Part shown: in pieces, positions 2,146 to 35,747 of the stretch
How positions within the stretch are numbered: position 1 is the stretch's first letter
Layout of the letters: each line of letters starts with the position of its first letter
DNA from: Parietaria judaica
Taxonomy: Eukaryota > Streptophyta > Magnoliopsida > Rosales > Urticaceae
DNA length: 64,000 nucleotides
Direction: 5' to 3'
Assembly: GCA_954871525.1 (NCBI GenBank)
Contig: OX940864.1
Span: 15,432,001-15,496,000 of the forward strand
Program-made: the position numbers and the translations under genes
The notes under the pieces: generated by a model
Seen by the model: the letters and a program-made list of their open reading frames with translations, nothing else
The model's database searches: none
What the model was told of the DNA's origin: nothing

Positions 2146-2150
2146 ATTAT

Positions 2151-2927
2151 TGTATATGGCGATTTTCACCACCCCTTTCCAGTCATAAAGATAATCACCA
2201 AATAACAAATAAACAACAATAATTGATGAATATCTCTGTTTTATTATATTTTCCGAAAATGAGCTCGGTTTTCTTCCGTTGAATAGCTGGACAGATGAAG
2301 GATCATGAACCTCAACTCTCTCTATTTCCTTAGCCTTTTTTATTACAAGATTTCTTTCTCTCTTTTCGGGCCTTTTTTCTCCATTTTTTCCGAACCTTTA
2401 CAAATGAGGCTTATCTTGTCTTTTATAGAGTTTACAATGCCTTCCCCTCGCATCCTTCCCGCCTTTTTCTCTTTAATCATTCACTCTCTGGCGTGATTTG
2501 AGGGCAGCATGGTTAATCTTTGCTTTATGTCACTTCCGAGCAGGCTGCCGTTATGGGTAGGTGCGTCTCATTAAATGCGCATCTCGTCAGCTGTCATTCG
2601 GCTCTGCGAGCCTCGTCGCTGGTGTTCTCCTCGAGTGAGTAGGTCGGCTTCATTAAATGCACATCTCGTCAATGGTCATTTGACCCTGCACAATCATCAT
2701 GACGAAATTCCTCGTCGGGTGTGATGGGACGCTTCGTCGCAACTTGCTCTCGCGTGGCTGCGTCTCCTCGTGGATGAACCTCCTCGGGGGTATTCTTCAT
2801 CGGGGATGTTCCTCCTCGGGGATAATCCCCCTCGGGTGACGAACTTCCTCGCCTCCCCTCATGTCGTTTATAGACCAAACGACACGAGTTGTGTTGAGGA
2901 CGGATTTGACCAAATCCGACCTTAACA
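2151..2927 (-). repeat. 3' LTR of the 2151-11482 element
   Basis: 777 bp with TG...CA termini on both strands. It contains a minus-strand TATA box (CTCTATAAAAG, complement of about 2420-2430). The short ORFs inside it recur in the other LTR and are not genes. Confidence 0.92.
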
Positions 2928-2938
2928 GTTAGTCCCCC

Positions 2939-2968
2939 ATTTTATCAAGTGTATACACTTGGTAAAAT
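2939..2968. repeat. 30-bp palindrome beside the polypurine tract
   Basis: Two abutting 15-bp arms (2939-2953 and 2954-2968) are inverted copies with a single mismatch. They lie just inside the element's 3' LTR, next to the polypurine tract. Function unknown. Confidence 0.8.
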
Positions 2969-3604
2969 AAAGTATAACTATTTCGGAGATCGGCCCCAGC
3001 CGGCACTAGTTGGTTCCTGGTCGGCGATTGCTTCTTCGGCTCCTCGCGTGGTTATATTGCTAAGCCGCTTCCTTCCCTCGCAAAGCCTTCTTTACTTCCC
3101 TCCTTGTTGCGAGCCGGGTCCCTCGTCCGCGAAGGCTACCGTGACCTAAACGTCGTTGGCATCTTTGTCGAGAACCCTCCCTACTTACCTAAATTCTGTA
3201 AAAATACCGAAATATACGACTCGGAGGCAAAAGATGTAAACGTAAACATGCACTTTGTAAGTATAAAAATATAACTTTCCCGAAGAGACTCCTAGCGATG
3301 AAGATTTCTCAACGACGCTGAACGAGGAGTTCTCGCGAAGGTCCTTGTTAACGATCGAGGAAGCCCAACCCTCTTGCTTCTCCGGCCGTTGCTTGGTTCT
3401 GGGCCCCACCTCGGTTTGCTTTCCCAAAACTTGTCAGCCTCGAATCTCTCGCACGTCCCTTCATCATTGAATGCCCACCTCCTTTCGTATTCGAGTACTT
3501 GCAGGGATTTATAACGGGCCCTTGATACGAGCCGTCGATGAGTTAGCCAGCTTTAAATTTGGGCCGTTAGATCAAGACGCGCCTATCTATGCTTCTCCTC
3601 TTTC

Positions 3605-3611
3605 TATAAAT
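3605..3611 (+). promoter_or_regulatory. TATA box candidate for the antisense gene
   Basis: CTATAAATT lies about 130 bp upstream of the ATG at 3739 and is followed by a CT-rich leader. This arrangement looks like an ordinary plant core promoter and would give the antisense gene a start site independent of the LTRs. Sequence inspection only. Confidence 0.45.
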
Positions 3612-3738
3612 TCGAAGTTCATACCCACTTTCCCAAACGTTTTTCGTATTTTCAAGAACTCTCTCAAAGCTTCTTTTCCGTTGTTACCCTTATTCCCTCA
3701 TCTCCAAGCTTCTTCTCCCTTCTCCCTCAGACGCCCCG

Positions 3739-6700
3739 ATGGCTCCTTCCCGCTCCGGCCCGGTCTTTAAGACCCGAAGCCCCCCTTCCGTCATGACGGA
3801 AGAGGGTTTGAAGTTTATCGTCGACAACCATTCTGACTCAGAGCTCTGTTTTGCACGTCTCCCCCTCGAGGGTGAATTCGCCGACGAGCCTCAGAGCGAC
3901 TTCGTCTGCGTATACGAGTCGTTCTTCCGCGTCGTTGGTCTCCGCTTCCCGATGCCGCTCCTGGTCGTGGCGTTTCTCTACGCCTTTGGGGTTCCGATCG
4001 CTCAGGTGAGCCCCAACACCCTTCGCCTTCTCCTCTGCACACTCGCAATTGCATGTGAGCAGAAAGTGGAGCTTACGCTCGAGGACTTAATGCGCCTCTT
4101 CAAGGTCTCCTGTAATCCGAAGAATCTGGGTCGCTTTGCCATCTCTCATCGCGTCCGGCCGCACATTCTTCTGAACACGCCGTCGAACGAGTCTGGTTGG
4201 GAGAATAAGTATTTCTTCGTCCGCGTGGACAACTCCAACTTCGGTCCCCACCATGCTTTCCTACCGAGAGATTTGGTGCTCGAGGGAGTGGACCTCCCTC
4301 GATTTAAGCCCGAGGGGAATGAAGAGGCCAAGGCGCGGTTCAAAGACATCCATGCTGCTCTCCTTGCCAACCCCATGCGCGATTGGAGTAAGGACTTCGG
4401 GAATTTGCGGCTCGAGAAATCTGGGGTCTATCAGCTGGCCCGAATCAACGGGGCGCCCCCAGATACTCTCCTCCCGGAAGGTTTTCTTCGCGCTCCTGCT
4501 CCGGAGGGATCTCCCGTGGAGCGGAAGAAACCCGTTTCAAGGCCGAAGAAGAAAACTGAGGATAAAGTCATTGCCGCTAGGGACAACGGTCCCGTCGATC
4601 GGGATCGGGAGGCGCATAGACCGTCGAGGTCTCGAGCAGGATCCGACGCCCCTCGCTACATGGGGATCACCCCCCGAGAGGGCGGCTTCTCGAGTAAACG
4701 CCCTGTCGAGAATACTTGCGACGAGCGGCGAACAAGAACGAGGACGGAGTCCGTTGCCCGTTCCTCGCCAGATGCTTCCGGTTCCTCGAGGAGATCTCCT
4801 CGAGAAGAAGGCTCTTCGGGCAAGCGCCCCGCCGAGGAGGTGTGTGATGCTCCCTCCGCGAAGAAAGCGAAGGTTCCCGATTCGACCCCTGAGCTCGAAG
4901 CTGCTGGTCCGTCTCGAGGAACAGCGGAGGGAGCTCCGGGCACCGCGTCCGTCGATGGCACAGTGGGGAGGACGGGACTGGCGGCGGACGGGCGTGCGCG
5001 CCCCGCCGTGAAACCGCGGGAGAGACTGGAGTTTAACGACATCGAGCGTCTGGTCGTCGCGCCGAATGCTCCTCCTCCGCCCCCTTTGGGGGTTGAAAAT
5101 TCCATTCCTCCTTCCGCTCCGGGGGTCGCGACCCGGTTCTCCCCGTCACCGCCTCGAGGAATCCCCGGCGAAGCGACGCGGGACTTGGTCGCGGCCTCTA
5201 TGCCTCCGACTCAAACTTTGGTCAAAGAGACCCATGCTTCGAACGAGGGAGATACGGGGCCTGTTGGCGAGGAGGACGCCTCAGAGCAGATCCTCTTCGG
5301 GCCCGAGGAGGAGCAGTCCGGGGTGCACCCCGAGGTGAATCTCCCTGGCCCGAAGCTTCTTCCTGACGCGCCTGGTATCAAGGCCCTCGAGGGCTCATTG
5401 GTCCGGCCTTCTCCCGATTTTACCGGCGTCTCCGACTCGCAGGTACCTCTTATCATTCCTTCTAGAGTGTCGCTCAGATCAACGGGTGACTCGGCGCAGC
5501 CTTTACCCCGAGAGGGACCCCGATGAGGCACCTACCGGGTCGCCACGGGCCCAAGCCAGCCTCCCGGCCTTGCCGCCTCCGGGAGCACTTCCCGTGGCCG
5601 AAGCCTCTCACGGGCTCGTCGATCCTTCCAGCGATTCCGTGGACAGTTGTCGGCAGAGCTCACGTTAGTCCGGGGACAGTTTGAGGCTTCCGCCTGTGAC
5701 GGGCAGAGCTCACGTTAGTCCGGGGACAATTTGAGCAGTGAGTTGTCGGCAGAGCTCACGTTAGTCCGGGGACAGTTTAAGGCTTCCGCCCGTGACGGGC
5801 AGAAGTCCCAGGAGCAGGCTGAGAAGCTTTCCTCGGAGCTCGACGAAGCCACGTCTGCTTTGAAGTTGGAAATTTCGTTGCGCCGGGCCGCCGAGGCTGG
5901 GCTCGACGAAATCAAGTCCGCCTTGGAGTCGGAAAGCGCGTTGCGTCGGGCCGCAGAGGCTGAGCTCAACGAGACCAAGTCCACCTTGGAGTCGGAAGTC
6001 TCGTTGTGCCGGGCCGCTGAGGCTGAATTCGCGGAACAGCGAAACTCTTGCGTTGTTAAGGAGGCGGGCCTCTCCGATAAGCTCCGGCTTCAGGCTGAGT
6101 GCCTCGCTCAAATTGGCGAAGCCGTCGGCGTCTCGCCCGAACAGGAAGACCATCTGGCATCTCGAGTCGACGCCGTCCTGAGGAAGTTCGCCGAGGACTT
6201 AGAGGCCGCGCGAGCTGAGGCAGTTGAGGAACGTCACGGCCGAGAGCGCTTGTTCGAGGAGGCCCAAGCCAAGCTGGAGCGCCTCTCGGTGAAGTATGAT
6301 CTTCTCAATGAATCAATCAACGCTCACCGCTTGGCCGCCGCGTACCACGCCAACATTGTCTTGGTCGAGACAATCCCCCTGGCGGCAAAAGCCGAGGGCC
6401 TCGATACCCGCTTGCCCTCGTGGCGCAAAATCCGCGATAAGCACCGGGCCGTGGTAGAAGAGTTGGACAAGAAATCCGCCCGGAACCCTGACTCTCCACC
6501 GCTCTCCCCCTGCAAGCCGGCAGTCTCGGACTTTCGGAGACTTGAAAGCCTCGCCTCGGAGGGGGCCGTCCTTGGGTCTGCATCGCGCGATGGATCCGGC
6601 TCAAGCACCGAAACCCCGGCGCTCCCAGAGCCCACGGTATATGACGTTTTCTTGGAGCTTCCCTTTCAATTTCCCTCTCTTTTATTGTAAATTCCTCATT

Positions 6701-7950
6701 TTGTGGCTTTTTTCTGTAATCCAAGCATTTAAGCGAATTATCATATGAAATAAAGAAATCTTTCTCGGGTTACCTTTTCCTTTCGTCGTCAAGCTTTTTC
6801 CTACTACCGCCCTCGTATACTTGTCTCTCCCTTATCTCTCTTCTTGTCGGGCTTGCTTATTGTTTCTTCCGTATCTCCATTCTCTTTTTCCCTTCGCAGG
6901 CCGGAGGTGGTGCCGTTGCTCTTTGCCCCGACGCCTCTTCTCCCGGTGATGGAGGAGGTGAGGAGGGGGCCGGGGAACCTGGGCTTGCTCTTGCTCCGGC
7001 GAGGACTATATCGGGAAGCGACGATATTCCCCCCAAGACTACAGGGGCTAAGCTCGCCGAGTGTAGGGCGGAGCGTGATGAATATAGACGTCTCCTCGCT
7101 ATCGCCGAAGAGTCCCTCCTTGAGGAGCGACAGCGTTATCAGCGGTGCGAGGACACTCTCTCGGCGCAGCTCCGGCAAAAGAATGAGTATTTCAATCGAA
7201 TCGCCGATGCCATAAACTTGTCGCCCGGTCGGGAGGAGCAAATCTCCTTCCACGTCAAGACCGTGCTAAGGAAACTCGCCAAGGACCGTGATGCAGCCAG
7301 GAGCTGGGCAATAGAGGAGGAATTTTCCCGCTTACGCCTCTATCACCAAGCGGTTGACAAGCTAAAGCACGCCTCCGAGAGATTTGGTGCACTTGAAGGG
7401 ATTGCTCGTGTTCAGCGCCTGCTGGGCGGTGTGCTCTCGAACATCAAACTCGTCGAGGGATTACCTTCCCGCTCGACTGTTGGTGAGCTTCGAGCCAAAC
7501 TGCCAAGGTGGCGCAAGTTGGAGCAGGAATACCTGGCCGATTTGGCCAAGCTGGAGAGGAAAATCTCCGGTGCTACAAACTCTCCTCCGCTTTCCCCCTG
7601 TCTCCTTCCGAGTGTCGCTAGAGCGCGCTCGCCTGGTTTTGAGGTTCTTCCTTCCTCGTCGAGTACAGTATGAGGTAGCTTAGTTTAAATAATTTGTAGT
7701 TTTACCTCCTTTTGAGATCGGTCCCTCACTCTTGGCTCCTTCCTTGCAGGCTGACAGTGGAGTCAATGCGAGCCTCGCGGGTGCTTCTTCGAGTAAGCCC
7801 CCGGAGCTCCCCGCTGACCATCCTGCTTGCTTAATTGTGGACGACATCCTTCGTCGCGTCTGTGATACCATCATCGAGGAATGTGCCGACGCAGTCCTGG
7901 GTCAATATCCCATCGACGGTGCCGCTAGGCGAGAGGATCGGCCCCTGTGA
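3739..7950 (+). CDS. Antisense retroelement gene: gypsy-type transposon domain plus long coiled coil, spliced
   Basis: Multi-exon gene antisense to its host retroelement. Likely exons are 3739-5442 (ends CAG/GTACCT), about 5743-6636, 6900-7667 and 7750-7950. All junctions are phase 0 with GT/AG borders, giving roughly 1,190 aa. Residues about 25-230 resemble the plant 'putative gypsy type transposon' domain (Pfam PF04195 type). A Pro/Ser/Arg-rich linker with basic NLS-like clusters follows (KKPVSRPKKK, SAKKAKV). Exon 2 encodes a coiled coil with three 21-residue repeats (RRAAEA cores). Exons 2 and 3 then share a related module, from VSPEQED/LSPGREEQ to NPDSPPLSP/TNSPPLSP. The exon 2 acceptor is uncertain: 5647-5780 holds an imperfect 96-bp tandem duplication with an in-frame TAG at 5716-5718, and exon 1 read through hits TGA at 5524. 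The model needs splicing past both. Molecular role unknown. Confidence 0.6.
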
Positions 7951-8087
7951 GAGTTTATAATAGGTGTTTGCACTTGGGGTGTGAACGATGAATTATAAAC
8001 GATGATACCCTGCATTTCGTACTTTTGAAAATGAGCATATGATGATTTTCTTTTAAGAGTTTGCTCACAGTCTTTGAATTCATACGG

Positions 8088-8857
8088 GCTTGCTCGTCGC
8101 CCTTAGTCGTAAAAATATAATTTTTCTTTGCTCGGCACTCTCGCCGGCTCGGGCTTGCTCGGCGCCCTTAGCCGTAAAAATATAATTTTTCTTTGCTCGG
8201 CACTCTCGCCGGCTCGGGCTTGCTCGGTGCCCTTAGCCGTAAAGATATAATTTTTCTTTGCTCGGCGCTCTCGCCGTACCTCTTTTCCTTGGCACTTTCG
8301 CCGTAATTGTCTCTTGCGGGTATCACTATGTTTCATCGGGTACGAGCCGACTAATTCCCAGGACCCCATAGGCACTCTCGCCTTAGTTGTCTCTTGTGGG
8401 TATCGCTAGGTTTCGTTGGGTACGAGCCGACTAATTCCCAGGATCCCATAGGCACTCTCGCCTTGATTATCCCTTCCTCGGCACTCTTGCCGGCCCGGGC
8501 TTGCTCGGCGCCCTTAGCCGTATATGAATCTCGACATGTCTTGTCGGACCGGGTTTGCTCGGCACCCTTAGCCGTATATATGGATCTCGACATGTTTTGC
8601 CGGACCGGGTTTGCTTGGCACCCTTAGCCGTATATATGGATCTCGACATGTCTTGTCGGACCGGGTTTGCTCGGCACCCTTAGCCGTATATATGGATCTC
8701 GACATGTTTTGTCGGACCGGGTTTGCTTGGCACCCTTAGCCGTATATATGGATCTCGACATGTTTTGCCGGACCGGGTTTGCTCGGCACCCTTAGCCGTA
8801 TATATGGATCTCGACATGTTTTGCCGGACCGGGTTTGCTCGGCACCCTTAACCGTAT
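8088..8857. repeat. Three adjacent minisatellite blocks
   Basis: Block A (about 8090-8275) has three copies of a 65-bp unit containing GCCGTAAAAATATAATTT. Block B (about 8280-8460) has two copies of a unit of about 80 bp containing GAGCCGACTAATTCCCAGGA. Block C (about 8480-8857) has six copies of a 56-bp unit containing ATGGATCTCGACATG; its register marks fall at 8525, 8581, 8637, 8693, 8749 and 8805. All share CTCGG and CCCTTAGCCGTA elements, so they probably derive from one ancestral unit. They sit between the 3' ends of the two convergent cargo genes and do not look coding. Confidence 0.9.
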
Positions 8858-9181
8858 AATTAGTATATATTTTATTTATCACTATACTATATGCACATAT
8901 ATATGCTACTATATATACATTTTTTTTATGAATATCACGAAGATACTTTCCATCCTATTTGATACTATCGCTGAGCAGAGTTGCATACACACTTTGCCAA
9001 CTTTATAAACTTGCTCGCTCCTTAATAAACAAAAGAAAGACATACACACATGGACATTAAAAGAAAAAAAAAAACAAACCCAAACAAACTTCTACCACCT
9101 ATTATAATCTACTAACGGTTAAAAAGGTAGCCATCCCAATCCTCCCCTCGCGCCGAGCAGCGTATGAGCCTTACTCCGGGC

Positions 9182-10183
9182 TCACTCCTCTTCGACGATC
9201 AAGCAGGCTGACGACGCAATTTTCTCCATAGAGCTCCAGCTGGGGCGACCGAAGTTACATTCCGGGCAGAGGTCAGTGTACCACGTGGTACCGAGGATGT
9301 AGCACGACCTGCAAAAACCGCAAGCACGCCCATTTCGGCGTCGTCCAAAACACGGCGGGCGGACGGAGTCTCCTGCTTGAGTCCTCGTTGGCTTCTCGTA
9401 GACCAGGACATTCTTGTCGCACCGCCTGCAGAACTCCGTGTCGAGCAGACGACCGCGTGGGGCAGGCGCCTGCTGCTCGGGATAGTCGGCTGGATTCCCT
9501 GCCGCGAGCAGTGGGGGAAGGTCCTCAAGTTTGACCCTGGTTCCCTCCACGAGCCTGGGAAATAACCGGTTGACCCTCAAAAATTTTATCCCATGCTCGA
9601 TGGTGGATAAGTTGCTGACCACGTCGTCTAAGGTGATTCGGTGGCAGCGTGGCAGACATAGCTTTACGAGCATCGGGTTGCCCCGCATGATTGTCTCCAC
9701 CGCGGCATTGGTGACCTCTTCGCACTCGTACAGAGTCAAAGTTTCCATCTTCTCTTGAGACCTCCTTGCCAGCCTCAGGAGATCCTCGTCTATGATCCGC
9801 TCGTTCAACGGGCTGTAGATGCTGAGGTTGCACCACAGAAGGTTGTTTCCTCTAACCTCGTCGCGTAACGAGGTGCACACCATCTCCACTGCGAGGAGTT
9901 CCTGGGGCATAAGATACGGCTGGACCAGTTCCAACGCGGGGTGTGGTTCACCTGGGATCCTCGAATCCTCCTGATCCCGTTGGCTCTCTGTGGCGTCCTC
10001 CTCCATTGGACATGGCTCCCTGCTTTCCGGCCATTCCTCGTGCTTCCAGAAGTCCGCCATTTCGTGATCATCTCCTCCTCGTGCCCCCGTTGCGTCCCCC
10101 TTGGGCCATCCCCAGCCTTCATCCACGATCATTTCCGACCCGTCTGTGTGGCTTTGGCCAGCACCTCCTTCTCTGAGCGCCAT
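9182..10183 (-). CDS. SKIP14-like F-box protein carried inside the LTR element
   Basis: An intact intronless 333-aa ORF. F-box proteins act as substrate adaptors of SCF E3 ubiquitin ligases by binding SKP1. Here an F-box-like segment spans residues about 82-125 (HPALELVQPYLMPQELLAVE, then CTSLRDEV and LLWCNL). Leucine-rich-repeat-like strands cover about 128-205 (EKMETLTLYECEEVTNAAVE). A Cys-rich tail covers about 251-310 with paired Cys (FCRRC, CGFCRSC, LCPEC). This order, and segments such as LRDEVRGNNLLW and CDKNVLVYEKP, match what I know of plant SKIP14. The N-terminal ~80 residues are acidic and not conserved, and the ORF is shorter than a typical SKIP14 of about 450 aa. The start codon has good context (AAGATGGCG). 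The ORF reads in the element's sense direction and is the first ORF after the primer-binding site, where gag would normally be. I judge it a captured host gene; whether it is functional is unknown. Confidence 0.75.
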   Translation of the reverse strand: MALREGGAGQSHTDGSEMIVDEGWGWPKGDATGARGGDDHEMADFWKHEEWPESREPCPMEEDATESQRDQEDSRIPGEPHPALELVQPYLMPQELLAVEMVCTSLRDEVRGNNLLWCNLSIYSPLNERIIDEDLLRLARRSQEKMETLTLYECEEVTNAAVETIMRGNPMLVKLCLPRCHRITLDDVVSNLSTIEHGIKFLRVNRLFPRLVEGTRVKLEDLPPLLAAGNPADYPEQQAPAPRGRLLDTEFCRRCDKNVLVYEKPTRTQAGDSVRPPCFGRRRNGRACGFCRSCYILGTTWYTDLCPECNFGRPSWSSMEKIASSACLIVEEE

Positions 10184-10685
10184 CTTCTCCTCGTGTACTT
10201 TCTCGGCCTGTATCGCGAAAATACTAGCGAATGCTGGTTTCGGAGTAAGAAAGGAACTTTTACTTTCTGGGTCGAGAGAATGGTACTTATCTGGGAGTTA
10301 ACCGAGTTGGTTTCTATTTCCGCAGACTTGTTCTTGCTGATCCTCTCCAAACTTCCCATTTTATAACCGTTGATTGCCTCGCACGCAACTCTTCGTATTC
10401 TCTGTTTCGCTGTCACCTCACAACGCTTCGGGAGTTGCTCCGATTCATTGATATGCGTGCACTCCTTTTTCTGATTAACCGTCTATCAATCGGCTTCTCT
10501 TAAATGCAAGGAGTCCGTACGTCTCCCCTTCTTACGTCACTCATGCCCCTTGAGTTGCCTCCTTATGCTCTGCTCGCTATTTTCGCGCGCTCAGCCATCA
10601 CCTCAAGCACGTCGCTGACGACGGCGTCGTTTGATAACGTCATGCTCCTCCAAATTCTTGGCTGTGAGTTAGAAAGAAAACAAAG
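10184..10685 (-). other. Leader between primer-binding site and F-box ORF
   Basis: About 500 bp with no ORF of its own. It contains a TATA-like TTATAAAAT on the minus strand (10358-10366), about 175 bp upstream of the F-box ATG. That could be a captured host core promoter or chance. Confidence 0.5.
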
Positions 10686-10703
10686 CCCCTCGGTGGGCGC
10701 CAA
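10686..10703 (-). other. Primer-binding site
   Basis: Read on the minus strand, TTGGCGCCCACCGAGGGG begins two bases after the 5' LTR end. TGGCGCC matches the 3' end of tRNAs ending GGCGCCA and is the PBS type seen in Tat-like Ty3/gypsy elements. It fixes the orientation of the element. Confidence 0.8.
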
Positions 10704-10705
10704 AC

Positions 10706-11482
10706 TGTAGAGGGCGATTTTCACCACCCCTTTCCAGTCACAAAGATAATCACCAAATAACAAATAAACAACAATAATTGATGAATATCTCTGTTTTATT
10801 ATATTTTCCGAAAATGAGCTCGGTTTTCTTCCGTTGAATAGCTGGACAGATGAAGGATCATGAACCTCAACTCTCTCTATTTCCTTAGCCTTTTTTATTA
10901 CAAGATTTCTTTCTCTCTTTTCGGGCCTTTTTTCTCCCTTTTTTCCGAACCTTTACAAATGAGGCTTATCTTGCCTTTTATAGAGTTTACAATGCCTTCC
11001 CCTCGCATCCTTCCCGCCTTTTTCTCTTTAATCATTCACTCTCTGGCGTGATTTGAGGGCAGCATGGTTAATCTTTGCTTTATGTCACTTCCGAGCAGGC
11101 TGCCGTTATGGGTAGGTGCGCCTCATTAAATGCGCATCTCGTCAGCTGTCATTCGGCTCTGCGAGCCTCGTCGCTGGTGTTCTCCTCGAGTGAGTAGGTC
11201 GGCTTCATTAAATGCACATCTCGTCAATGGTCATTCGACCCTGCACAATCATCATGACGAAATTCCTCGTCGGGTGTGATGGGACGCTTCGTCGCAACTT
11301 GCTCTCGCGTGGCTGCGTCTCCTTGTGGATGAACCTCCTCGGGGGTATTCTTCCTCGGGGATGTTCCTCCTCGGGGATAATCCCCCTCGGGTGACGAACT
11401 TCCTCGCCTCCCCTCATGTCGTTTATGGATCAAACGACACGAGTTGTGTTGAGGACGGATTTGACCAAATCCGACCTTAACA
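10706..11482 (-). repeat. 5' LTR of the 2151-11482 element
   Basis: 777 bp, about 98-99% identical by eye to 2151-2927. A minus-strand TATA box (complement of 10976-10982, TATAAAA) would start the element transcript and so drive the F-box ORF. Confidence 0.92.
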
Positions 11483-11487
11483 ATTAT

Positions 11488-14510: not shown

Positions 14511-15623
14511 TGTCACACCCTAAAATCCTTAGAGATGATCCGTGCCCGGGGAAGCACGGGAAGGAGGCCCAACAAGCCTCCCGGGCGCTAGACAGGTGAT
14601 TATACGTGCCCGAAGAAGTCTTGGTGTGCCAAGCAAAAGTCTCGGTGGGCCGAGCACACTTGCGGGAGTCTTACGCAGGTAACTTGACGGATGGAAACTC
14701 ACCATAGGTGCACGACGGATACCCGGGCCACGAGAGAGGCCTAGGCGTGCACAAGGCAAACGAAGAAATCAAGGGAACGCTAGATGATGGCGCAAGGGAA
14801 CGTTGGATAACGCGCCAAGGAAGTGGGCCAAGCGAATGGGCTGCCAGGCCCATGCGCATGGCGAGAAGACACGCGACTCGGGCAGCGACACGCGACTTGG
14901 GCAGCCAGCGCACGCGGGCAGCGATACGCGCACTCGGGCAGGGGAAGTCGCGCGCGACCGAGGCAGCGTCACCCACGCGAGATCAGCGAGCCTCACCCAC
15001 GCTCAATCAGCGAGCCTCACCCACGCGCAACCAGCGAGAGTCACCTACGCGGAAGGCTTGCATCACCCACACGTTTTGGGAGGCCTTGACACGGATTGCC
15101 CACGAAGATTGAGGATCAAGAAAGGAAAAGACGCGTGAAGAAGATAGCGGCCAAAAGGGGAAACGCGTGCTAAAGATCAAGCTTGAAGATAGGATAAAGC
15201 TTCAAGATAGGATCGCGTCTAGAGTTGGATTTCGACTAGGATTAGGATTATCTTAACCTTGCCTATTTAAAGAGCCACGTTGGCCGAGTTTAGTCATTCC
15301 ATTCATTCGTTTATTCTCTAGCATTAGTTTAGGCTTAGAGTTAAGTCTTTCTAGAGATAAGTCTTATATATTCGAGTACGGGCCGTGCACGAGTTAAAGT
15401 GCCGAGTCAGCAGAGTCTGTAATCCTTTTAAGTATTAATAAAAGCTTAAGGTTGAGGTGTGCCTCGTATATGATTGTCTTGAGTGATTAAAATACTTAGT
15501 GAGAGTGAGTGAATCCAATTGAGGAAGGGCCTCGGTTGTTAAGGCTGGTCGGATTCAGGGGAATTTGACGCCGCATAGGGAATTTTGTTAAGAAAAGATA
15601 ACGGAAGAATTAACCCTGTGACA
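14511..15623 (+). repeat. 5' LTR of the chromovirus
   Basis: 1113 bp, from TGTCACACCC to CCCTGTGACA. It is longer than its partner mainly because of an extra copy of a short repeat (AGCGAGCCTCACCCACGC, near 14985-15020) and a 35-bp piece near 15375-15410. A TATA-like segment occurs in CCTATTTAAAGAG near 15265. Confidence 0.92.
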
Positions 15624-15625
15624 AG

Positions 15626-15637
15626 TGGTATCAGAGC
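15626..15637 (+). other. Primer-binding site (initiator tRNA-Met)
   Basis: TGGTATCAGAGC, two bases after the LTR end; the standard PBS of many plant LTR elements. Confidence 0.93.
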
Positions 15638-15655
15638 TTATATTTGTCTTCAAGA

Positions 15656-17668
15656 ATGGTGAAGACAAAGGGGAATAACCCCGATCTGGTGGAACGAGTG
15701 ACGACGTTGGAGGCGCTGGTTAGTGTACCCGCCAATGACGGAAAGTCCTTAGACGAATAGGTGCTCGCGCATTCAGCGGAGATCAAGGAACTCAAGAAGA
15801 TGATCTTAGAAGCTCAGAAGGAGATGATCGCCCAGAGCGAAGTTATACTCGATCGACTTACGGAGGTTACTGCATAGTTATCGGAAAGAGTTACAGATTT
15901 GGAGACCGATGTTAGAGTTATTAAGCGAGCGACGGACAGCTTGCCAAGCGAAGTTAACAAAGGTGCTGGTCCGAGATTCAAGGTTCCCGAGCCGAAACCC
16001 TTCAGTCGGGTGCGAGACACAAAGGAGCTAGAGAATTTTCTATGGGACATGGAGCTATACTTCAAAGCGGCTCACGTGGATTCCGACGACAAGGTAACAA
16101 TCACAAGTATGTACATGCGGGGAGATGCTAAGCTGTGGTGGAGAACCCGGCTTACCGAAGGAGTCGGCCCAGAGGGGGAAAGCACCAAGACTTGGGACGA
16201 TCTGAAGACGGAGCTAAAGACTCAGTTCCTGCCCGTGAACGCGGAATGGATTGCGAGAGACGCACTAAAGAGGCTAAGGCAAACCGGATCTATTCGCGAT
16301 TACGTGAAGGAGTTTAGCTCGTTAATGCTAGATATCCGTAACATGTCCGAGGAGGACAAGCTATTTAATTTCCTTTCAGGATTACAGCCTTCGGCTCAGA
16401 CGGAATTGAGGCGAAGAAACGTTCGTGACCTACAAACTGCAATGGCGACAGCAGACGGATTAGTCGACTACGAGTTCAACCACACCCCGGCGCGGACAGA
16501 TCGGAGAGAGAACTCAGACGGGAGCAATAAAAGCCAAGATGGACTTCCAAGACGGGACAGAAGGCAAGAATATGGATCGACCAAGGGAAGGACGGACCGA
16601 AGCGGCTATAGAGGGGGCCTACGGTGCTTCCTTTGTGACGGTCCCCATATTGCAAGAGAGTGCCCGACGACGATGAAGTTAACGGCCATGGCTGCCCGAG
16701 ACGAAACACCCGAACAACCTGAGGAGGTTTCTGCTAGGATGGGCTGCCTGCAGTCGCTCAATGCCATATGGGTGGTGAGTCTCGAGAGAAAGCGAGCCAC
16801 ACCCATGGAAGTGACAACCGGCAGTGAGCAAGAGTCCGAAGACGCGAACGTTATTCCACACTGCGGTAGTGTGAAGTGTCCGCTACCCACCCTTGGGATA
16901 CCCGACGGGAATGAGAGACAGGAGCCTACAGTGCCCTTGGCAGCTAGAGATGATGCCAGCCAAGAAACGGGTAAGGTGACATTAGCTTTTGTTGAGACAG
17001 GGTACCCGGCTAATGCACTAGGAGAGGAACCCGTGGAGAGGAGCAAGGCCCCTTCCCCGAGGAAGCACAAGCACGAGTTCAGAACGAGACCGACGACTCG
17101 AGTCCCACATGTGAAGACGCCAATAGAGATGGTGTAGAAAAGGGTGAAGCGTAAAGGGGACAAGAAAAGATGGTGTAGACAGTTCGAGAGAGGCGACAAG
17201 GTGTTGCTAAAACTAACACCGCAAATGAGAACGAAGCTACCGGACGAGCTTCAAACGACCGAGTTACTTAGGTATCAAGGTCCCTTCGATGTGTCGAAGA
17301 AGGTCGGGGATGAGATGTACCGCCTTGAATTGCCGGCAGAGATGAAGAACCTCCATTCAACCGTCCATGGAAGCTTCTTGAGGCCGTATCACGAGGATTC
17401 GGAACAGAAGAGGTTTCAAGAGAAGAGAGCAGAGTACAGAGCTAGATCGGGAAAGAGAGTCCATCAGATTCTAGACAGTCGGACGAGCTTGAAGAATGGC
17501 AGAGACGAGCTCTTGGTTCATTGGGAAGGGAGTAAAACGTGCGATGCTACGTGGGAGCGTGACGATGCCCTTTGCCGATTCAAAAGCAAAGAGATGAAGA
17601 CATGCTCAGAAGAAAACTCGACGAGGACGTCGGTTCAATCCGGCGGGGGAGAGTTTTTCACACCCTAA
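15656..17668 (+). pseudogene. Chromoviral gag fused to integrase C-terminus and chromodomain, three amber stops
   Basis: One reading frame (ATG at 15656) is interrupted by TAG at 15758, 15875 and 17135. The middle ORF (15899-17137) is gag: a capsid segment around the LWW, TWDDLK, FLP and LFNFLSGL signatures, then a zinc knuckle CFLCDGPHIARECP. After the third stop, 17144-17668 encodes the integrase tail (RGDKVLLKL, LLRYQGPFDV, YRLELP, FLRPYHED). It ends in a chromodomain (VHQILDSR, ELLVHWEG, DATWERDDAL), which in this group targets integration to heterochromatin. Everything between the gag zinc-knuckle region and the integrase tail is deleted. Not functional as it stands. Confidence 0.9.
17643..17654 (+). 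other. Polypurine tract of the chromovirus
   Basis: GCGGGGGAGAGT immediately precedes the 3' LTR and is the usual plus-strand priming site. Confidence 0.8.
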
Positions 17669-18723
17669 AATCCTTAGAGAGGATCCGTGCCCGGGGAAGC
17701 AAGGGAAGGAGGCCCAACAAGCCTCCCGGGCGCTAGACATGTGATTATACGTGCCCGAAGAAGTCTTGGTGTGCCAAGCAAAAGTCTCGGTGGGCCGAGC
17801 ACACTTGCGGGAGTCTTACGCAGGTAACTTGACGGATGGAAACTCACCATAGGTGCACGACGGATACCCGGGCCACGAGAGAGGACTAGGCGTGCACAAG
17901 GCAAACGAAGAAATCAAGGGAACGCTAGATGATGGCGCAAGGGAATGTTGGATAACGCGCCAAGGAAGTGGGCCAAGCGAATGGGCTGCCAGGCCCATGC
18001 ACATGGCGAGAAGACACGCGACTCGGGCAGCGACACGCGACTTGGGCAGCCAGCGCACGCGGGCAGCGATACGCGCACTCGGGCAGGGGAAGTCGCGCGC
18101 GACCGAGGCAGCGTCACCCACGCGGGATCAGCGAACCTCACCCACGCGCAACCAGCGAGCGTCACCTACGCGGAAGGCTTGCATCACCCACACATTTTGG
18201 GAGGACTTCACACGGATTGCCCACGAAGATTAAGGATCAAGAAAGGGAAAAACGCGTGAAGAAGATAGCGGCCAAAAGGGGAAACGCGTGCTAAAGATCA
18301 AACTTGAAGATAGGATAAAGCTTCAAGATAGGATCGCGTCTAGAGTTGGATTTCGACTAGGATTAGGATTATCTTAACCTTGCCTATTTAAAGAGCCATG
18401 TTGGCCGAGTTTAGTCATTCCATTCATTTGTTTATTCTCTAGCATTAGTTTAGGCTTAGAGTTAAGTCTTTCTAGGGATAAGTCTTATAGATTCGAGTCA
18501 GCCGAGTCAGCAGAGTCTGTAATCCTTTTAAGTATTAATAAAAGCTTAAGGTTGAGGTGTGCCTCGTATATGATTGTCTTGAGTGATTAAAATACTTAGT
18601 GAGAGTGAGTGAATCCAATTGAGGAAGGGCCTCGGTTGTTAAGGCTGGTCGGATTCAGAGGAATTCGACGCCGCATAGGGAATTTCGTTAAGAAAAGATA
18701 ACGGAAGAATTAACCCTGTGACA
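17656..18723 (+). repeat. 3' LTR of the chromovirus
   Basis: 1068 bp. It starts TTTCACACCC (first G mutated compared with the 5' LTR) and ends CCCTGTGACA. Confidence 0.92.
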
Positions 18724-18825
18724 AATTATATATTAGATATATTGGATGCGAAAATTTATCAGATTTTCGAGTTTTTACACTTTCATATTTATCTTAAAAA
18801 ATTGACTGCAAAAACTAGTATCGTC

Positions 18826-23148: not shown

Positions 23149-24287
23149 TTAGGTGGCAAACAGTATATCCCTCGCCATTTTCGCCGATATCGGGAATCTG
23201 TCCCGTTGATTCTTCCACCACTTTATGACATCGAACTCGCCTGAATCGTCCTCGAACCGTAGGCCGTAGTATCGCTTAACTTCTGCCGGTGCGGCTTCCG
23301 GTATGTCCGCCCGTGCCGGTCCCGTGCTGGATTCTCCTGCTTCCCCGCGATCTATCCGTTGCCTGAGTCTCCGGCTAAACGCTAGTCCCGTCTTCGTTGG
23401 GCTCTCCATCACTGTCCTTTGCTCTTCCTGTGCGTTGAACTGTGGGAACCGGGTGTCGTATTCACTGTACAATGCAAAAAAGGCTTCGTTAACAACGTTA
23501 ATATAATTCTGGTAATCCACCCCGAGGTTTTCCCCGCAGGCTAACATTAATAATTCAAGTGATTATTATTGAATAATTATTAATAATTAAAAATTAATTA
23601 TTATTTATTAATTATTATTTATTACTTATTACTTATTAATTATTAATAATTAATTATTACTAAGTACTAACTTATTAATTAATAAATATTAATAATTAAT
23701 GAAATAAAAAAATGAATAAAGGTTATTACCCGGTTGAAGGACGTCGAGCACGTCGAGGACGGGCAACGGAGGCTTCACCGCTATCTTGATTGGAAGGTAG
23801 AGAAGAACCGCGGTTGTAAACCCCAACATTTGAACCATGGACCGAGGGCGGCGTTTGAAAGTCGTCGGGATCGGCATCGTGGGGACGTTGAGTTTCGTCG
23901 GGATCGGCATCTTCGGGGCGTTGAGTTTCGTCGGGATCGCACCTTCGGGACGTTGAGATTCGTAATCGGCGTGCCGTTCAAACATGAGATTGAAAAAAGG
24001 ATCGTTATTTCCCCCCTAGATTGAGCCACCGCGTCGACCAATTCTCGGGACACACGTTCGGGATTGGCTTGGTGGTGGGCCAACGCCCGGACTAGACTAG
24101 GTCTTAGAGACCGTACTGTATCGTCGGGATAATTTGGATTGGGAGGGGAAGGGAATATTTATGCGGGTAGCATAACGGGAATGTAGTCGTCGGGACAAGG
24201 CTGCGATGTTCCCCCTTGTAGAAATTGGGGTTGCAAATTCCTGGCCGCCCTTCGACCCCCGGAACTACCGCCGCTTCTTCGAGACAT
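23149..24287 (-). pseudogene. hAT transposase remnant
   Basis: The downstream part (23149-23547) encodes ...EFDVIKWWKNQRDRFPISAK then MARDILFAT. This is the start of the hAT C-terminal dimerisation region (family pattern FDVLxWWKxxxxxFPxLSxMARD). It stops where the conserved continuation should follow. The upstream part opens with an ATG at 24287 (MSRRSGGSSGGRR) and stops after 42 codons. The region between (23690-24085) holds overlapping out-of-frame ORFs with repeated RSRRNST/IPTKLN segments. Core catalytic residues are absent, so this is a decayed or internally deleted hAT element. Confidence 0.6.
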
Positions 24288-26137: not shown

Positions 26138-29100
26138 ATGCTAATGAATAGATTAAAACTAGCTTCACTTTTCCATGCCATCATGGCAACAATCTTTCTC
26201 TCAATCCTGCGAGCCTCGTATGCGACAAACGAGCAAGACTTCGTCCGGCCACCGCCGGGAAAACTCGTGTTTCATCCCCACAACCGATCAGAATCTGACC
26301 CTCAACAGGTGATTATATAAACCTATAATGAATGGTTTTGGTTCTAATTTCATGATCAAGATTGACATTTGACATTAATATATATTATATGATTATATAT
26401 ATTTTTCAGGTACATATATCCCTCGTAGGAAAAGACCACATGAGGGTTTCGTGGGTTACGGAACACGGCCATGCAAAATCTATGGTGGAATACGGGACGT
26501 CGCCGGGGAAATACAATGGCGTCGTGACAGGAAACCATACATGGTACCAATATTTTTTCTATAAATCCGGGAAGATCCACCACGCCACCATCGGGCCGTT
26601 AAAATCAAGCAAGACATACTACTACCGGTGTGGAGGGTCCGGTCCCGAATTCTCCTTCCGGACACCGCCTTCGACGTTCCCCCTCGAATTTGTGGTGGTT
26701 GGTAAGTAAAACTATTTACTTATTTTTGCTAGGAATAATTAGGGTTTCCCTCGAGAATTCGAGTGTAATATTTAGAACATTATTTTATTTTTTATAATAT
26801 TGGCTTGGTTTTTTTTATTAAAAAAATAGCTTAACTGGTTAATTAGTTGCTATATTTTGTTATTGCTTTAAGCCTAAGCGACAAGGGATTATAGCAACTA
26901 AGTTCAGGAGTGTAAACTACGTGGTGGTGGGGATTGTTGTTACTTTCATATTGGATATATTTATATTATTTTCTCACTTTTTCAATGACATTTATTTCTT
27001 TTTTTTTTCAACTTTTTTAATGGATAATGGTCAAATTATCAGCTAGAATGGGCCACCACGAGGTTGTTTAGAGACTTCAAAATAGAACGCAACGTTTGAA
27101 CCAGAAAAGTAGCCACGTCATTATTCAGCGTTGAGTAATATCAGTGTTTTAAAACCCGCAATGCAAATTGAATTTACGGGTATACTAAAGGCGGGAGTCG
27201 GGAGGAGTATATCAATAGGTTTTCTTGAGAGTTTTAAAAATTAATATTGATTGTGTCAATTCGATTCTATGGATATGTAGAAAAATCCAATTTGATTTTA
27301 TGGATATATAGAAAAATCGATGGGCATCCAAATGACATTTTTTTATTCACGGCCTAATTTTTTCAATGTAATTCGCAATTTGTCACGGCCGTAGTTTCTA
27401 ATGTTCACTATTTTGTTTCTTTTGCAAATCGTCGACTGTTTTAATTGAGTTAACAAAATTTTAGATGTATTGTTAAGCTTTCGACACATTTCAATTTTGG
27501 GAGAGAAAATTTATTAATAGCGTATTCAAAATTCTTTTAAATTAATTAAAAAAGTAGACAAAGTTTTGGTGAAAGAAAAATAAAGATTACGAACTTTGAT
27601 CTTGTAAAAAAAATAGACTTATACAATAAAAAATTTAAAACATGAATATGTAAAATATAAATTCTATAGAAGATTTGTACCACCATCAAGCAGTGACAGA
27701 TAATTTATGTGTCAATTATTCTTGTCAATTAAGTTTTTATTGTTACATTTTGTTGGTCTTAAATTTGGATATTGCATCACTGAAGGTGACTTAGGGCAAA
27801 CAGACTGGACAGAATCGACCCTACGCCACGTGGACAACAGAGATTACGACGTGTTCTTGATCCCCGGTGACCTCTCCTACGCTGACGGCCACCAGCCTCT
27901 CTGGGACTCCTTTGGCCGCCTGGTCGAGCCATACGCTAGCCGTCGGCCTTGGATGGCCGGTACTGGCAATCATGAGGTCGAGGCTATCCCGATCATCGCC
28001 AGCGAGGCCTTCAAGGCATTCAATTCCCGGTGGCTGATGCCCCATAGGGAGAGTGGCTCTCCCTCCAACCTATACTACTCCTTTGACGTTGCAGGAGCTC
28101 ATGTTGTGGTGCTCGGTTCCTACACCGACTACGGGGTCGGGTCCGAGCAATACCGGTGGTTGCAGTCGGATCTTGAGGCGGTGGATCGTGGGAGGACTCC
28201 GTGGGTGTTTGTATTGGTGCATGCGCCATGGTACAGCACCAACTTGGCGCACCAGGGCGAGGGCGACGCCATGAGGAAGGCGATGGAGGAGCTCCTCTAC
28301 GCGGCTAGGGTTGACGTTGTTTTCGCCGGCCACGTCCACGCCTATGAACGCTTTGTGAGTAGTTCAAATAATAAAACGTTAAAAATTTCATATTAACAAA
28401 ATTAAATGAGTATAACAAGATTTATAAAATTATTAATTCTTCGATATAATTAGTTTTAATATGAAACTTCATCATAATATTTAACAAGATATTTGAGCTT
28501 TATATAAGCTCGAATATCAACGTATCACAATTAACAAACCATCTTAACTTTGTTTATAATCGACATAAATATATAATAGTTTAAATTTTATGAGGCCTAA
28601 ACTAATTTTTCACAGTCATATTCTTCGTGTCTACTTACTATTTACAAATTTAAAAATTTATAAAAATGACATGCACCTAAGACTTACAGCACATCCAAAC
28701 TTTTGTAAAATCAATAAAAAGAAGCAAAACAGGATACACTTGGGATCTTTGACCATAAAAAAATAGTTTATAACAAAAAAAAAAAAAAAGAAGATATCAA
28801 GTATTTATGTTCCTATTAATCCTATCAATTATAATGTCTATGTATTTGATTTTATGAAATATTAAATTGTTGTCCAAATAAAAATAGTATTAGTACAATA
28901 ACAAAAAAAAAATGTATAGTGTGCATCGAAGAAAAGTTGCTTAAATAATTTTGAAAAATAAGTGCAGAAATTAAACGAGTAAATAGAGTAGATATTTTGC
29001 AAAAGACTGCATTAATACTAATAGTATACGCGTATTTTTAGTGTTGAAATAAGTGTGAGTCGTGACTCATGACAATTGATATGTATTTGGTGGTGAATTA

Positions 29101-31579: not shown

Positions 31580-32107
31580 TCAGATCTTGTCGAGCTTCTC
31601 GGCCTTGACGAGCGGGTTGGCCCGGGCGATCTCCTCCTTCCCGACCCGCTTGAAGTCGAACGAGCAGTCGTGCTTCTCCGGGTACCGGTGGGTCCCGCAG
31701 AACGTGGTCCCGCACCGGCACTTGAACCCGGTCAACCCGACCCGTTTCCGACACACCAGGCACCGGTTCAGCCCCGAAACGACGCCGCTCGCCACCGCCG
31801 GAGCCGGAGCCGAAATCTCTCTGGCTTCCACCGCCGCCGACGACGCCTTCGGAGCCGGCGAGATAGCGCCGATCGAGCCGACCTCCGGCTTCGGAACCGG
31901 AGCGAGCGACGGAGACGAGGAGGACGAGGACGGCATGAGCGAAGTCTCGACGCTGGATTTGATGGAGGCCTGCTGTTGCTCGTTGAGGCAGAGGTCTCTG
32001 TAGCACTTGGAGCAGAAGTTCATGGTCGTCGGACTCCCGAAGAAGCCGCAGTTGTTCGCGCAGAGCCGGTGGCCCTCCGGCGACTGAAACCTGTGCTCCT
32101 CCGCCAT
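31580..32107 (-). CDS. A20/AN1 zinc-finger stress-associated protein (SAP)
   Basis: Complete 175-aa single-exon CDS. Plant SAPs respond to drought, salt and cold; several bind ubiquitin and some act as E3 ligases. The A20 finger has C16, C20, C32 and C35 (CANNC...CSKC). The AN1 finger has C116, C119, C130, C132, C137, H140, H146 and C148 (CLVC...CRC...FCGTH...HDC). Between them is a Ser/Pro/Ala-rich linker. Length, finger order and spacing match the common A20-AN1 SAP type. The coding region is intronless, as usual for the family. The leader contains two small introns (separate entry). Confidence 0.96.
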   Translation of the reverse strand: MAEEHRFQSPEGHRLCANNCGFFGSPTTMNFCSKCYRDLCLNEQQQASIKSSVETSLMPSSSSSSPSLAPVPKPEVGSIGAISPAPKASSAAVEAREISAPAPAVASGVVSGLNRCLVCRKRVGLTGFKCRCGTTFCGTHRYPEKHDCSFDFKRVGKEEIARANPLVKAEKLDKI

Positions 32108-32530
32108 GGCTCACCTCTCTGATCAACCGGACACGGATCTGCAAAATTCAACCTCGTCGCACGCCGGATCTGACGGAAAAAACACAGAATCCGCAGCGAA
32201 ATCGAACGAATTCTCACCTGACGCGATCGAAGATGACAATCTCTGGAATCGGAGATGATCGGACGCAGATCTGCAGAATCAAACCGGTCACACGCCAGAT
32301 CCGAGCAAAAAAAAAAACCAAAATTCGCGAAGATTTATAGCTAATTTTCTACGGATTTCGATGAAATCAAAGGAGCGTGTTACCTGAGGAGATCGGAGAT
32401 TGGAGATTTGCTCGAAGAGAGATTCGATTGGGAGGAGGATAAGAGCGAGAAAGGGAAGAGGATTGAGGAATCTTTAGGAGGAAGGAAAGTTTTGAAGGTT
32501 TGCGAAGGAATACTAAAGAGAGAGAGAAGA
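32108..32530 (-). other. SAP 5' UTR with two duplicated mini-introns
   Basis: Read on the minus strand, intron 1 is 32383-32271 (CAG/GTAAC to TCTGCAG) and intron 2 is 32217-32139 (CAG/GTGAGA to TTTTGCAG). They are separated by a 53-bp untranslated exon. The 3' ends of both introns and the starts of the following exons are alike (GGCGTG(T/C)GAC... then ATC(T/C)G(C/T)GTCCG), so one intron-exon unit has been duplicated. 5' UTR introns are common in plant SAP genes. Confidence 0.65.
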
Positions 32531-34689: not shown

Positions 34690-35747
34690 CAAGGTTCGCA
34701 TTTTCGACGATAATCGTCGATAATCTCCGATTTTCGGTAGTTACCGGTAAGTTGCCGGCTCTAATACTTATCGTTTTATATACTTTTCGACGATTATCGA
34801 GCTTTTCAATAAAACATTTTCCAACCGATTTTCGACAAAATGCGTGTAAAAAATAGGTACTTTTCGGTTAAATGAAAAAAAAATTCGCGGCAAAAATACC
34901 AATTAAACTTTCGGCAAAAATAATTATACTCACACAAGAGCACCTCACCCCGTCACGTCCGACCGGACGGACGGCGGCGGCGGCGCGCGCGTGTGGTGGT
35001 GTAACATTTGTGTGAGTCCTCCCCCATCCACAAAATCCTATGACCCAAAGGGCCCAAGCCTTTGTCCCTAATATTTGGTATATAAACATCACCAAACTCT
35101 TGTCATCTATCAATGTGGGACTTTTTGTTATTCAACTAATATCACACATTCACACTTAACATACACATACACATACACTTCACCTAATAATTTAACTTAA
35201 TATTACACACTTCAAATAATATTATACACTTAACATACATATTAACTTCACTAACATACATATACATTTAATATGTATATTCATTTAATATTATACACTT
35301 CAACTAATATTAAATTTGTTAACATACATATACAATTAACATGCATATTCACTTAATATTACACACTTAATTAACATACATATTCACTTCACATAATAAT
35401 TTGACTTAATATTATACACTTAAACTAATAAAGTGACTTAATATTATACACTTAAACTAATAAAGTGACTTAATATTAGTGTTTTAGATTTGAGACTAGT
35501 GATGGAATTATATGTGTGTATGACTTTATTTACATATGTTTTGTGGTATGATATTATAAAAATATTTTGTAAGTTTTCCATCGAAAAGTATCGAAAAGTG
35601 TCGATAATCTGTCGATAATCTTCGAAAAGTATCGGTAATCGGTAAGCTACAATATTATAAGTTTTCCGTCGGTTAATCGGTAAGCTATCGATTAATCCGT
35701 TGAAAACGGTAACCGATTTATCGACAATCTCGGTAAGTTGAACCTTG
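34690..35747. mobile_element. hAT-like non-autonomous element, copy A
   Basis: Ends CAAGGTTCGC and GAACCTTG (inverted). Flanked by AGTTGTAC (34682-34689) and AGCTGTAC (35748-35755), an 8-bp TSD with one mismatch, as expected for hAT transposition. Subterminal DNA is rich in TCGATAATCG / CGGTAATCGGTAAGC motifs. No transposase. Confidence 0.75.

What the first reader, a model, noticed from the sequence alone, without database searches (positions are those of the whole stretch)
2151..11482. Retroelement carrying an intact F-box gene where gag-pol should be
Seen: matched LTRs, TSD, PBS and PPT place the element on the minus strand. The first ORF after the PBS is a clean 333-aa F-box/Cys-rich protein, and no gag or pol remains. 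Known: plant LTR elements occasionally capture host transcripts, and SKIP14 is a plant F-box family. Inference: an RNA-mediated capture replaced gag-pol with a ubiquitin-ligase adaptor, and the LTR promoter could express it. The near-identical LTRs suggest the insertion is young, so the intact ORF may reflect only short exposure to mutation.
Basis: partly seen in the sequence, partly recalled or inferred. Interest (0 to 1): 0.9.

Follow-up and report, generated by a model that had tools for sequence, protein, structure and literature searches.

The report
Retrotransposons that kept a stolen F-box gene
A plant LTR retrotransposon family carries, in the place where relatives with near-identical LTRs have their gag gene, an F-box gene that matches a host gene minus an intron; across 50 copies it shows far fewer protein-changing than silent differences, so it likely helps an element that would be copied by its relatives' enzymes.

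Summary
2151-11482 (minus strand) is a 9,332-bp LTR retrotransposon with 777-bp LTRs, TSD, PBS and PPT, no detectable gag or pol, and an intact 333-codon F-box/LRR-like ORF. A genome search that answered late found at least 121 copies of the ORF. In the 50 I read, the LTR lies upstream in 50, the flanks differ in all 50, and dN/dS is 0.31 (other frames, in the 20 lowest-ranked, 0.90 and 1.15; five neutral simulations of the same sampling 0.65-1.04). The genome holds a SKIP14-type gene (name recalled) with an intron that the ORF lacks exactly, so capture likely went through spliced RNA. Elements with LTRs 95-98% identical carry gag after the same PBS, one of them also RNase H and integrase: likely helpers. 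Best reading: a non-autonomous Tat/Retand-type family that has a host-derived F-box gene in the gag-pol position and keeps it by selection, so the protein likely serves the element. Its target and expression are unknown. New variant of a known kind, of high interest.

The parts
2151..2927 (-). 3' LTR of the element, 777 bp
   Evidence: 766 of 777 identical to the other LTR; TG...CA ends
10706..11482 (-). 5' LTR, 777 bp; TATA box at 10975-10982
2146..2150 (.). target-site duplication ATTAT, left copy (right copy 11483-11487)
10685..10702 (-). primer-binding-site-like sequence, 3 nt inside the 5' LTR
   Evidence: primer tRNA not identified
2928..2943 (-). polypurine tract at the 3' LTR
10613..10705 (-). 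first 90-93 nt after the 5' LTR, shared with gag-bearing same-LTR elements; homology ends here, so this is the upstream edge of the replaced block
   Evidence: 84-88% identical in L059, L060, L061, L064
9182..10183 (-). intact 333-codon F-box/LRR/Cys-rich ORF in the gag-pol position
10184..10705 (-). 522-nt leader with upstream ATGs
   Evidence: matched in 50 of 50 copies
3739..5442 (+). predicted exon 1 of the antisense gene, 568 codons; Transposase_28-like at 3907-4107
   Evidence: PF04195 E=0.15 (0.053 on the first 254 aa), below cut-off; present in 4 of 4 copies followed
5818..6636 (+). predicted exon 2 of the antisense gene
6900..7667 (+). predicted exon 3, 35% identical to exon 2 over 185 aa
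7750..7950 (+). predicted exon 4 and stop codon
   Evidence: found within 1.5 kb of the F-box ORF in 32 of 50 copies
8085..8279 (.). 65-bp tandem array, 3 copies
8487..8858 (.). 56-bp tandem array, 6.7 copies; unit found in 48 of 50 copies and in gag-bearing L059
2928..3110 (-). last 183 nt before the 3' LTR, shared with gag-pol-bearing L059 (94.0%)

Best explanation
This is one copy of a multicopy, 9.3-kb LTR retrotransposon family in which no gag or pol was found and whose sense gene is an F-box/LRR/Cys-rich ORF, likely captured from a spliced host SKIP14-type transcript into the gag-pol position of a Tat-clade (Retand-type) element and, by its dN/dS of 0.31, kept by purifying selection; it would be copied in trans by same-LTR relatives that carry gag and pol. 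How it would work: the LTR promoter makes one RNA (inferred) whose first long ORF encodes the F-box protein (translation inferred); Gag and Pol of same-LTR relatives package and copy that RNA (inferred from shared LTRs, PBS and 3' end); the F-box protein, as part of an SCF ubiquitin ligase (predicted), changes the fate of some host or element protein in a way that raises the number of copies (inferred from selection; target unknown). A second gene on the opposite strand (predicted, four exons, Transposase_28-like) is kept as well.
For: Copies: 121 scored matches of 683 candidates, all spanning at least residues 4-321. Of 50 read (the 30 best and the 20 lowest of the 121 listed), 50 have the LTR upstream (49 over at least 700 bp), 50 have distinct 20-bp flanks, 50 the leader, 49 the start codon; the eight cysteines of the C-terminal cluster are kept in at least 47 of 50. 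Selection: dN/dS 0.308 over 1,225 pairs, dN below dS in 1,223; 0.298 within the top 30, 0.315 within the bottom 20, 0.310 between them; other frames 0.94 and 1.12 in the top 30, 0.90 and 1.15 in the bottom 20; 0.39 to 0.25 from the closest to the deepest quarter of pairs in the top 30; transversions only 0.40; neutral simulations with the same picking 0.65-1.04 in 5 runs. Capture: host exons align (41% over 111 aa, 2.4e-21; 25% over 122 aa, 3e-4) and the host intron (...LVK | GT...AG | LSVPG...) has no counterpart in the ORF (...LVK-LCLPR...). Helpers: of 6 elements with paired LTRs 95-98% identical to the query, 4 have gag-type ORFs after the PBS (3 above the Pfam cut-off, one by sequence likeness only) and 2 the F-box ORF; L059 has two RNase H domains and integrase. 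Four F-box copies followed to the 3' LTR: matching TSDs 4 of 4, antisense exon 1 in 4 of 4, ORF-to-3'LTR 6,146-6,419 bp (6,254 here), so no room for gag-pol.
Against: The 121 copies were ranked by protein similarity, which lowers dN; the simulations suggest this alone gives 0.65 or more, but they rest on an assumed tree. The two F-box copies met through LTR DNA alone both have a broken frame near residues 254-275, and 16 of 50 copies hold a stop. Pairs are not independent. Six upstream ATGs, counted from an assumed start 32 nt after the TATA box, one uORF overlapping the ORF start, argue against efficient translation. No expression data. Only one host gene was compared, found with a motif recalled for SKIP14, so another F-box/LRR gene could be closer. 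RT itself was not found in the pieces of same-LTR relatives read.
Confidence: 0.88

Rival explanations
1. Passenger: the F-box ORF hitchhikes without function; low dN/dS reflects the host gene's past or the choice of similar copies.
For: Gene capture by plant LTR elements is common (672 genes in rice, 1,343 in sorghum; PMC3726574, passages). Copies were ranked by protein similarity. 16 of 50 have a stop, and both copies found by LTR DNA are broken.
Against: Differences among copies arose after capture, so host history cannot make dN/dS 0.31 among them; the ratio falls with depth; neutral sampling simulations give 0.65-1.04.
Confidence: 0.08
2. The protein serves the host, not the element: a domesticated F-box gene carried along in many copies.
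For: Host relative exists.
Against: Selection is seen across many scattered insertions with distinct flanks, not in one fixed locus; a host function would preserve one copy.
Confidence: 0.03
3. The selection acts on RNA or DNA overlapping the ORF (packaging signal, antisense transcript), not on the protein.
For: The ORF lies in the 5' part, where packaging signals are common (recalled).
Against: Such constraint would not follow codon positions; other frames give 0.90-1.15 and codon position 3 differs nearly twice as often as 1 and 2 (0.090 against 0.051 and 0.047).
Confidence: 0.02
4. Capture happened at the DNA level and the intron was lost later.
For: The parental transcript was not seen; only one intron was compared.
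Against: Exact removal of the intron in frame is what splicing gives.
Confidence: 0.1

Closest known systems
Retand lineage of Ty3/gypsy (Tat clade), PMC11963269 and PMC7264820
   Same: Antisense Transposase_28-type gene next to the 3' LTR, tandem repeats, LTR and internal lengths in range; a same-LTR relative has two RNase H domains, as in the Tat clade
   Different: No gag-pol in this family; a host-derived F-box gene in its place. That survey used RT as bait, so such elements were out of its reach
Tat/Ogre-type orchid elements with an AlkB demethylase (PMC9289625)
   Same: Tat-clade element that acquired and kept a cellular domain
   Different: There the extra ORF adds to an element that keeps its RT; here it stands instead of gag-pol. 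F-box is not among the domains named in the section I read
maize Bs1 and other LTR-captured genes (PMC13317346, PMC3726574; passages)
   Same: Host sequence carried by an LTR element
   Different: Bs1 holds gene fragments; here one ORF is shared by many copies with dN/dS 0.31
LARD-type non-autonomous LTR elements (recalled)
   Same: LTRs, PBS, PPT, no gag-pol
   Different: Two conserved coding genes inside
SKIP14-type F-box/LRR host gene, locus L067
   Same: F-box, LRR and paired-cysteine region; 41% identity over 111 aa
   Different: Host gene has an intron and a long N-terminal part not matched by the element's ORF
Polerovirus P0 and crinivirus p22 F-box-like silencing suppressors (PMC6593998, PMC6784205; search listing with abstract starts only)
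   Same: F-box-like proteins encoded by genetic parasites of plants
   Different: No target or activity is known here, and no sequence relation was tested

Membership tests
LTR retrotransposon | two LTRs with TG...CA ends and a target-site duplication | tested here: met
   TSDs also match in 4 of 4 further copies
LTR retrotransposon | PBS and PPT at the LTR edges | tested here: met
   primer tRNA not identified
Autonomous LTR retrotransposon | gag and pol | tested here: not met
   0 of 28 long stop-free runs in the window copy; no room in 4 of 4 further copies
Tat clade | additional RNase H domain in pol | tested here: inconclusive
   absent here with pol; a relative with 98% identical LTRs (L059) has RT_RNaseH and RVT_3 before integrase; the feature is stated in PMC6317226 (passages)
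Retand lineage | RT phylogeny | not testable with these tools
   no RT in the element or in the relatives' pieces read
Retand lineage | antisense Transposase_28 ORF next to the 3' LTR | tested here: inconclusive
   full-profile match in 4 of 4 copies scanned, E=0.025-0.053 on the N-terminal piece, all below the cut-off; 5 of 6 published conserved positions, 133 of 20,000 shuffles as good
Retand lineage | LTR 315-1,194 bp, interior 7,380-12,869 bp, tandem repeats in about half of clusters | tested here: met
   777 bp; 7,778 bp; arrays of 65 and 56 bp
F-box proteins | F-box domain | tested here: met
   above Pfam's cut-off in 4 of 8 family copies, below it in the other 4 and in the window copy
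F-box proteins | binding to SKP1 in an SCF ligase | not testable with these tools
   bench assay needed
SKIP14 family | homology to the host SKIP14-type gene across F-box, LRR and Cys region | tested here: met
   2.4e-21 and 3e-4 against L067; that L067 is SKIP14 rests on recall

The most novel reading that the evidence does not exclude
A retrotransposon family traded gag-pol for its own ubiquitin-ligase adaptor taken from the host: the F-box protein steers a host silencing or restriction factor to degradation, a retrotransposon counterpart of viral F-box suppressors, so that a gutted element earns its keep by disarming defence while same-LTR cousins supply the copying machinery.
Probability: 0.3. 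Interest if true: 0.93.

Novelty: new variant of a known kind. Interest (0 to 1): 0.82.

Why it matters
Elements without gag-pol are usually seen as decaying parasites of parasites. This family keeps two genes with the mark of selection, one taken from the host's ubiquitin system. That makes a long-standing question, whether plant retrotransposons fight host silencing with captured host genes, directly testable. Two broad surveys of extra domains found their elements through the reverse transcriptase (PMC11963269; PMC9289625) and could not have seen such families, so more may exist.

Tried and rejected
Rejected: chance ORF. Rejected: a retrogene inserted later into this copy (no long poly(A), longest sense A run 8 nt; no direct repeat of 7 bp or more between 10184-10300 and 9060-9181), and the same arrangement is found in many copies. 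Rejected: codon usage as a clock of capture, since host genes in the window are GC3-rich too, 0.60-0.88. Led nowhere: protein searches of both genes in the 5.8-billion set, no hit at 0.001; viral and bacterial contig scans; plasmids; AlphaFold2 on single sequences, mean pLDDT 36 and 39.5, too low to use, no fold search run; PBS text search, one bean microRNA paper, not opened. Literature searches for an F-box inside an LTR element showed no such report, but several were capped lists (for instance 20 of 904 papers), figures and subscription papers are not held; two listed papers that hold the words were opened at their passages and are irrelevant. Of 8 genome hits to the recalled SKIP14 motif, 7 did not match the F-box ORF at E up to 1; the backward control pattern had 4.
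Full report
What is there. On the minus strand, 2151-11482 is an LTR retrotransposon of 9,332 bp: LTRs of 777 bp with 11 differences, TSD ATTAT, PBS-like sequence and purine tract at the LTR edges. With usual plant rates (recalled, 6.5e-9 to 1.3e-8) the insertion is 0.55-1.1 My old. Nothing in the flanks of the 64-kb window matches it.

The window's own genome (538.7 Mb, 87 contigs) could not be searched until after my first attempt to file; one search then answered. The odds for a selected family component rose and those for a passenger fell because of it. Before that, one copy alone said nothing about selection: 7 mutations expected since insertion, P=0.75 of no new stop under neutrality.

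The F-box ORF is a family gene. The search scored 121 copies of 683 candidates (lower bound), at 82-92% protein identity to the window copy, which is itself among the 121, all spanning at least residues 4-321. I read 50: the 30 best (L001-L030, including the window copy) and the 20 lowest listed (L031-L050). The LTR lies upstream in 50 of 50 (49 over at least 700 bp), the 20-bp flanks are all different, the leader is found in 50, the 56-bp repeat in 48, antisense exon 4 within 1.5 kb in 32. Stop-free: 17 of 30 top and 17 of 20 bottom copies. The start codon is kept in 49 of 50 and the C-terminal cysteines 252, 255, 278, 288, 291, 294, 306 and 309 in at least 47 of 50. Residue 118 is Cys in the window copy but Arg in 46 of 50. 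The F-box match, sub-threshold in the window copy, passes Pfam's cut-off in 4 of 8 copies scanned. PDB matches to F-box/LRR proteins rest on several weak repeats together; no stretch is significant alone.

Selection. NG86 dN/dS over 1,225 pairs is 0.308, with dN below dS in 1,223; 0.298 within the top, 0.315 within the bottom and 0.310 between them. Other reading frames give 0.94 and 1.12 (top) and 0.90 and 1.15 (bottom). In the top 30 the ratio falls from 0.39 in the closest to 0.25 in the deepest quarter of pairs, as expected if new insertions drift while the copying lineages are constrained. Transversions alone give 0.40, so C-to-T decay is not the cause. Because copies were ranked by protein similarity I simulated neutral families sampled in the same way: 0.67, 0.90, 0.71, 1.04, 0.65, with 0.7-2.4 stops per copy against 0.42 observed. 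Mean dS is 0.20, several million years of family history at the recalled rates. Against this, the two F-box copies met through LTR DNA alone are both frame-broken near residues 254-275.

Origin. A degenerate pattern for a motif that I recalled from SKIP14 had 8 hits in the genome (backward control 4). One, L067, is a gene with F-box, LRR and paired cysteines. The ORF matches it at 41% over 111 residues (2.4e-21) and again downstream (3e-4); the copy L050, among the most diverged read, gives 44% (4.7e-23). The host gene reads ...LVK, then an intron with GT...AG ends (L067 972-1215), then LSVPGSTRLS...; the element reads ...MLVKLCLPRCHRIT... without a break. Exact intron absence points to a spliced RNA. 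The host protein has a long N-terminal part, recalled as typical of SKIP14, that the element's ORF does not match.

Relatives with the same LTR. The LTR as DNA query gave 3,052 candidates, 40 scored. I read the start of the interior of eight (for L059 the whole interior): six with LTRs paired at element distance and two unpaired. Of the six, four have gag-type ORFs (L059, L060 and L064 above the Pfam gag cut-off; L061 by sequence likeness only) and two have the F-box ORF (L062, L063); the two unpaired showed neither. L059, whose LTRs are 98% identical to the query, also encodes two RNase H-like domains and integrase; no RT core was found in the runs scanned, so it is itself incomplete. The gag-type elements share with the window copy only the first 90-93 nt after the LTR, and L059 also repeat units and the last 183 nt before the 3' LTR. 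So the block between was exchanged.

The opposite strand. 3739-7950 (+) holds a predicted four-exon gene (3739-5442, 5818-6636, 6900-7667, 7750-7950), 1,163 codons, all introns in phase 0. In a simple splice matrix that I wrote from recall only one of its six splice sites passed, so the model is a prediction; two in-frame stops (5524, 5716) fall in the first intron. Exons 2 and 3 are diverged duplicates, 35% over 185 aa, E=4e-30. Exon 1 matches Transposase_28 below the cut-off, E=0.15 whole and 0.053 for 254 residues, and 0.025-0.028 in three other copies. Five of six conserved positions listed in PMC11963269 occur at exact spacing; 133 of 20,000 shuffles do as well. Between four copies its N-terminal 253 codons show dN/dS 0.06-0.36 over six pairs.

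Geometry of other copies. Each has antisense exon 1, matching TSDs, and 6,146-6,419 bp from ORF to 3' LTR (6,254 here), leaving no room for gag-pol. LTR K2P is 0.005-0.030, so several insertions are young.

Lineage. PMC11963269 (abstract, Methods, Results, Discussion) reports antisense Transposase_28 ORFs in all but two of 63 Retand clusters, tandem arrays in 32, LTRs of 315-1,194 bp and interiors of 7,380-12,869 bp; here 777 and 7,778 bp. PMC6317226 (passages) found the domain in only 23% of Retand elements. Membership cannot be proved without RT.

How it would work. The LTR has a TATA box (10975-10982). From an assumed start 32 nt on, the leader is about 767 nt with six upstream ATGs, the last opening a 76-codon uORF past the F-box start; efficient translation is therefore open. 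Copying in trans is inferred from the shared LTR, PBS and 3' end. That selection keeps an F-box protein encoded by an element without its own enzymes implies that the protein raises that element's success, for which SCF-driven removal of a host factor is the natural guess. Nothing here names the target.

Novelty. Extra domains in gypsy elements and captured genes are known (PMC9289625 section 12; PMC13317346 and PMC3726574, passages). The word F-box has zero occurrences in PMC9289625, PMC11963269 and PMC7264820 (search listing) and in the main texts of PMC13317346 and PMC3726574. PMC7264820 was read in parts 1 and 2 of 3. PMC12062965 (passages) concerns nematode F-box genes that took a transposase domain, the reverse direction. 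I call it a new variant of a known kind.

Limits. Copy counts are lower bounds. The antisense-exon genome search did not complete. No expression, protein or phenotype data.

Noticed in passing
14513-18724: Second non-autonomous element: repeats 14513-15624 and 17658-18724 (93.9% identical) flank a gag run (15878-17134, Retrotrans_gag 2e-19) followed after one stop codon by an SH3/chromodomain run (17138-17665); nothing of the RT-RNase H-integrase core lies between them.
   Followed up: partly
10184-10705: Leader with upstream ATGs, one 76-codon uORF overlapping the F-box start, and a donor-like GTAAG; a leader intron is possible.
   Followed up: partly
L059 (1-4262): Same-LTR relative (98%) with gag, two RNase H-like domains and integrase but no RT core found in the runs scanned: itself internally reduced.
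   Followed up: partly
L062, L063: The two F-box copies found by LTR DNA alone both have a frame break near residues 254-275; whether this is one shared break was not checked.
   Followed up: no
5652-5803: A roughly 50-bp unit repeated about three times inside the first predicted intron of the antisense gene, containing the in-frame stop at 5716.
   Followed up: no
5836-6026: 63-bp in-frame tandem repeat (21 residues, 3 copies) at the start of predicted exon 2.
   Followed up: no
23152-23562: hAT transposase C-terminal dimerisation fragment on the minus strand, Pfam E=1.3e-7.
   Followed up: no
26356-28393: Purple acid phosphatase exons; also an A20/AN1 zinc-finger gene at 31583-32110 (-) and an SLC35F-like exon at 49131-49598.
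   Followed up: no
35474-37278: AT-rich stretch with a tandem repeat of period about 160 bp (36270-36835) bracketed by a 288-bp repeat pair, 84.7% alike.
   Followed up: no
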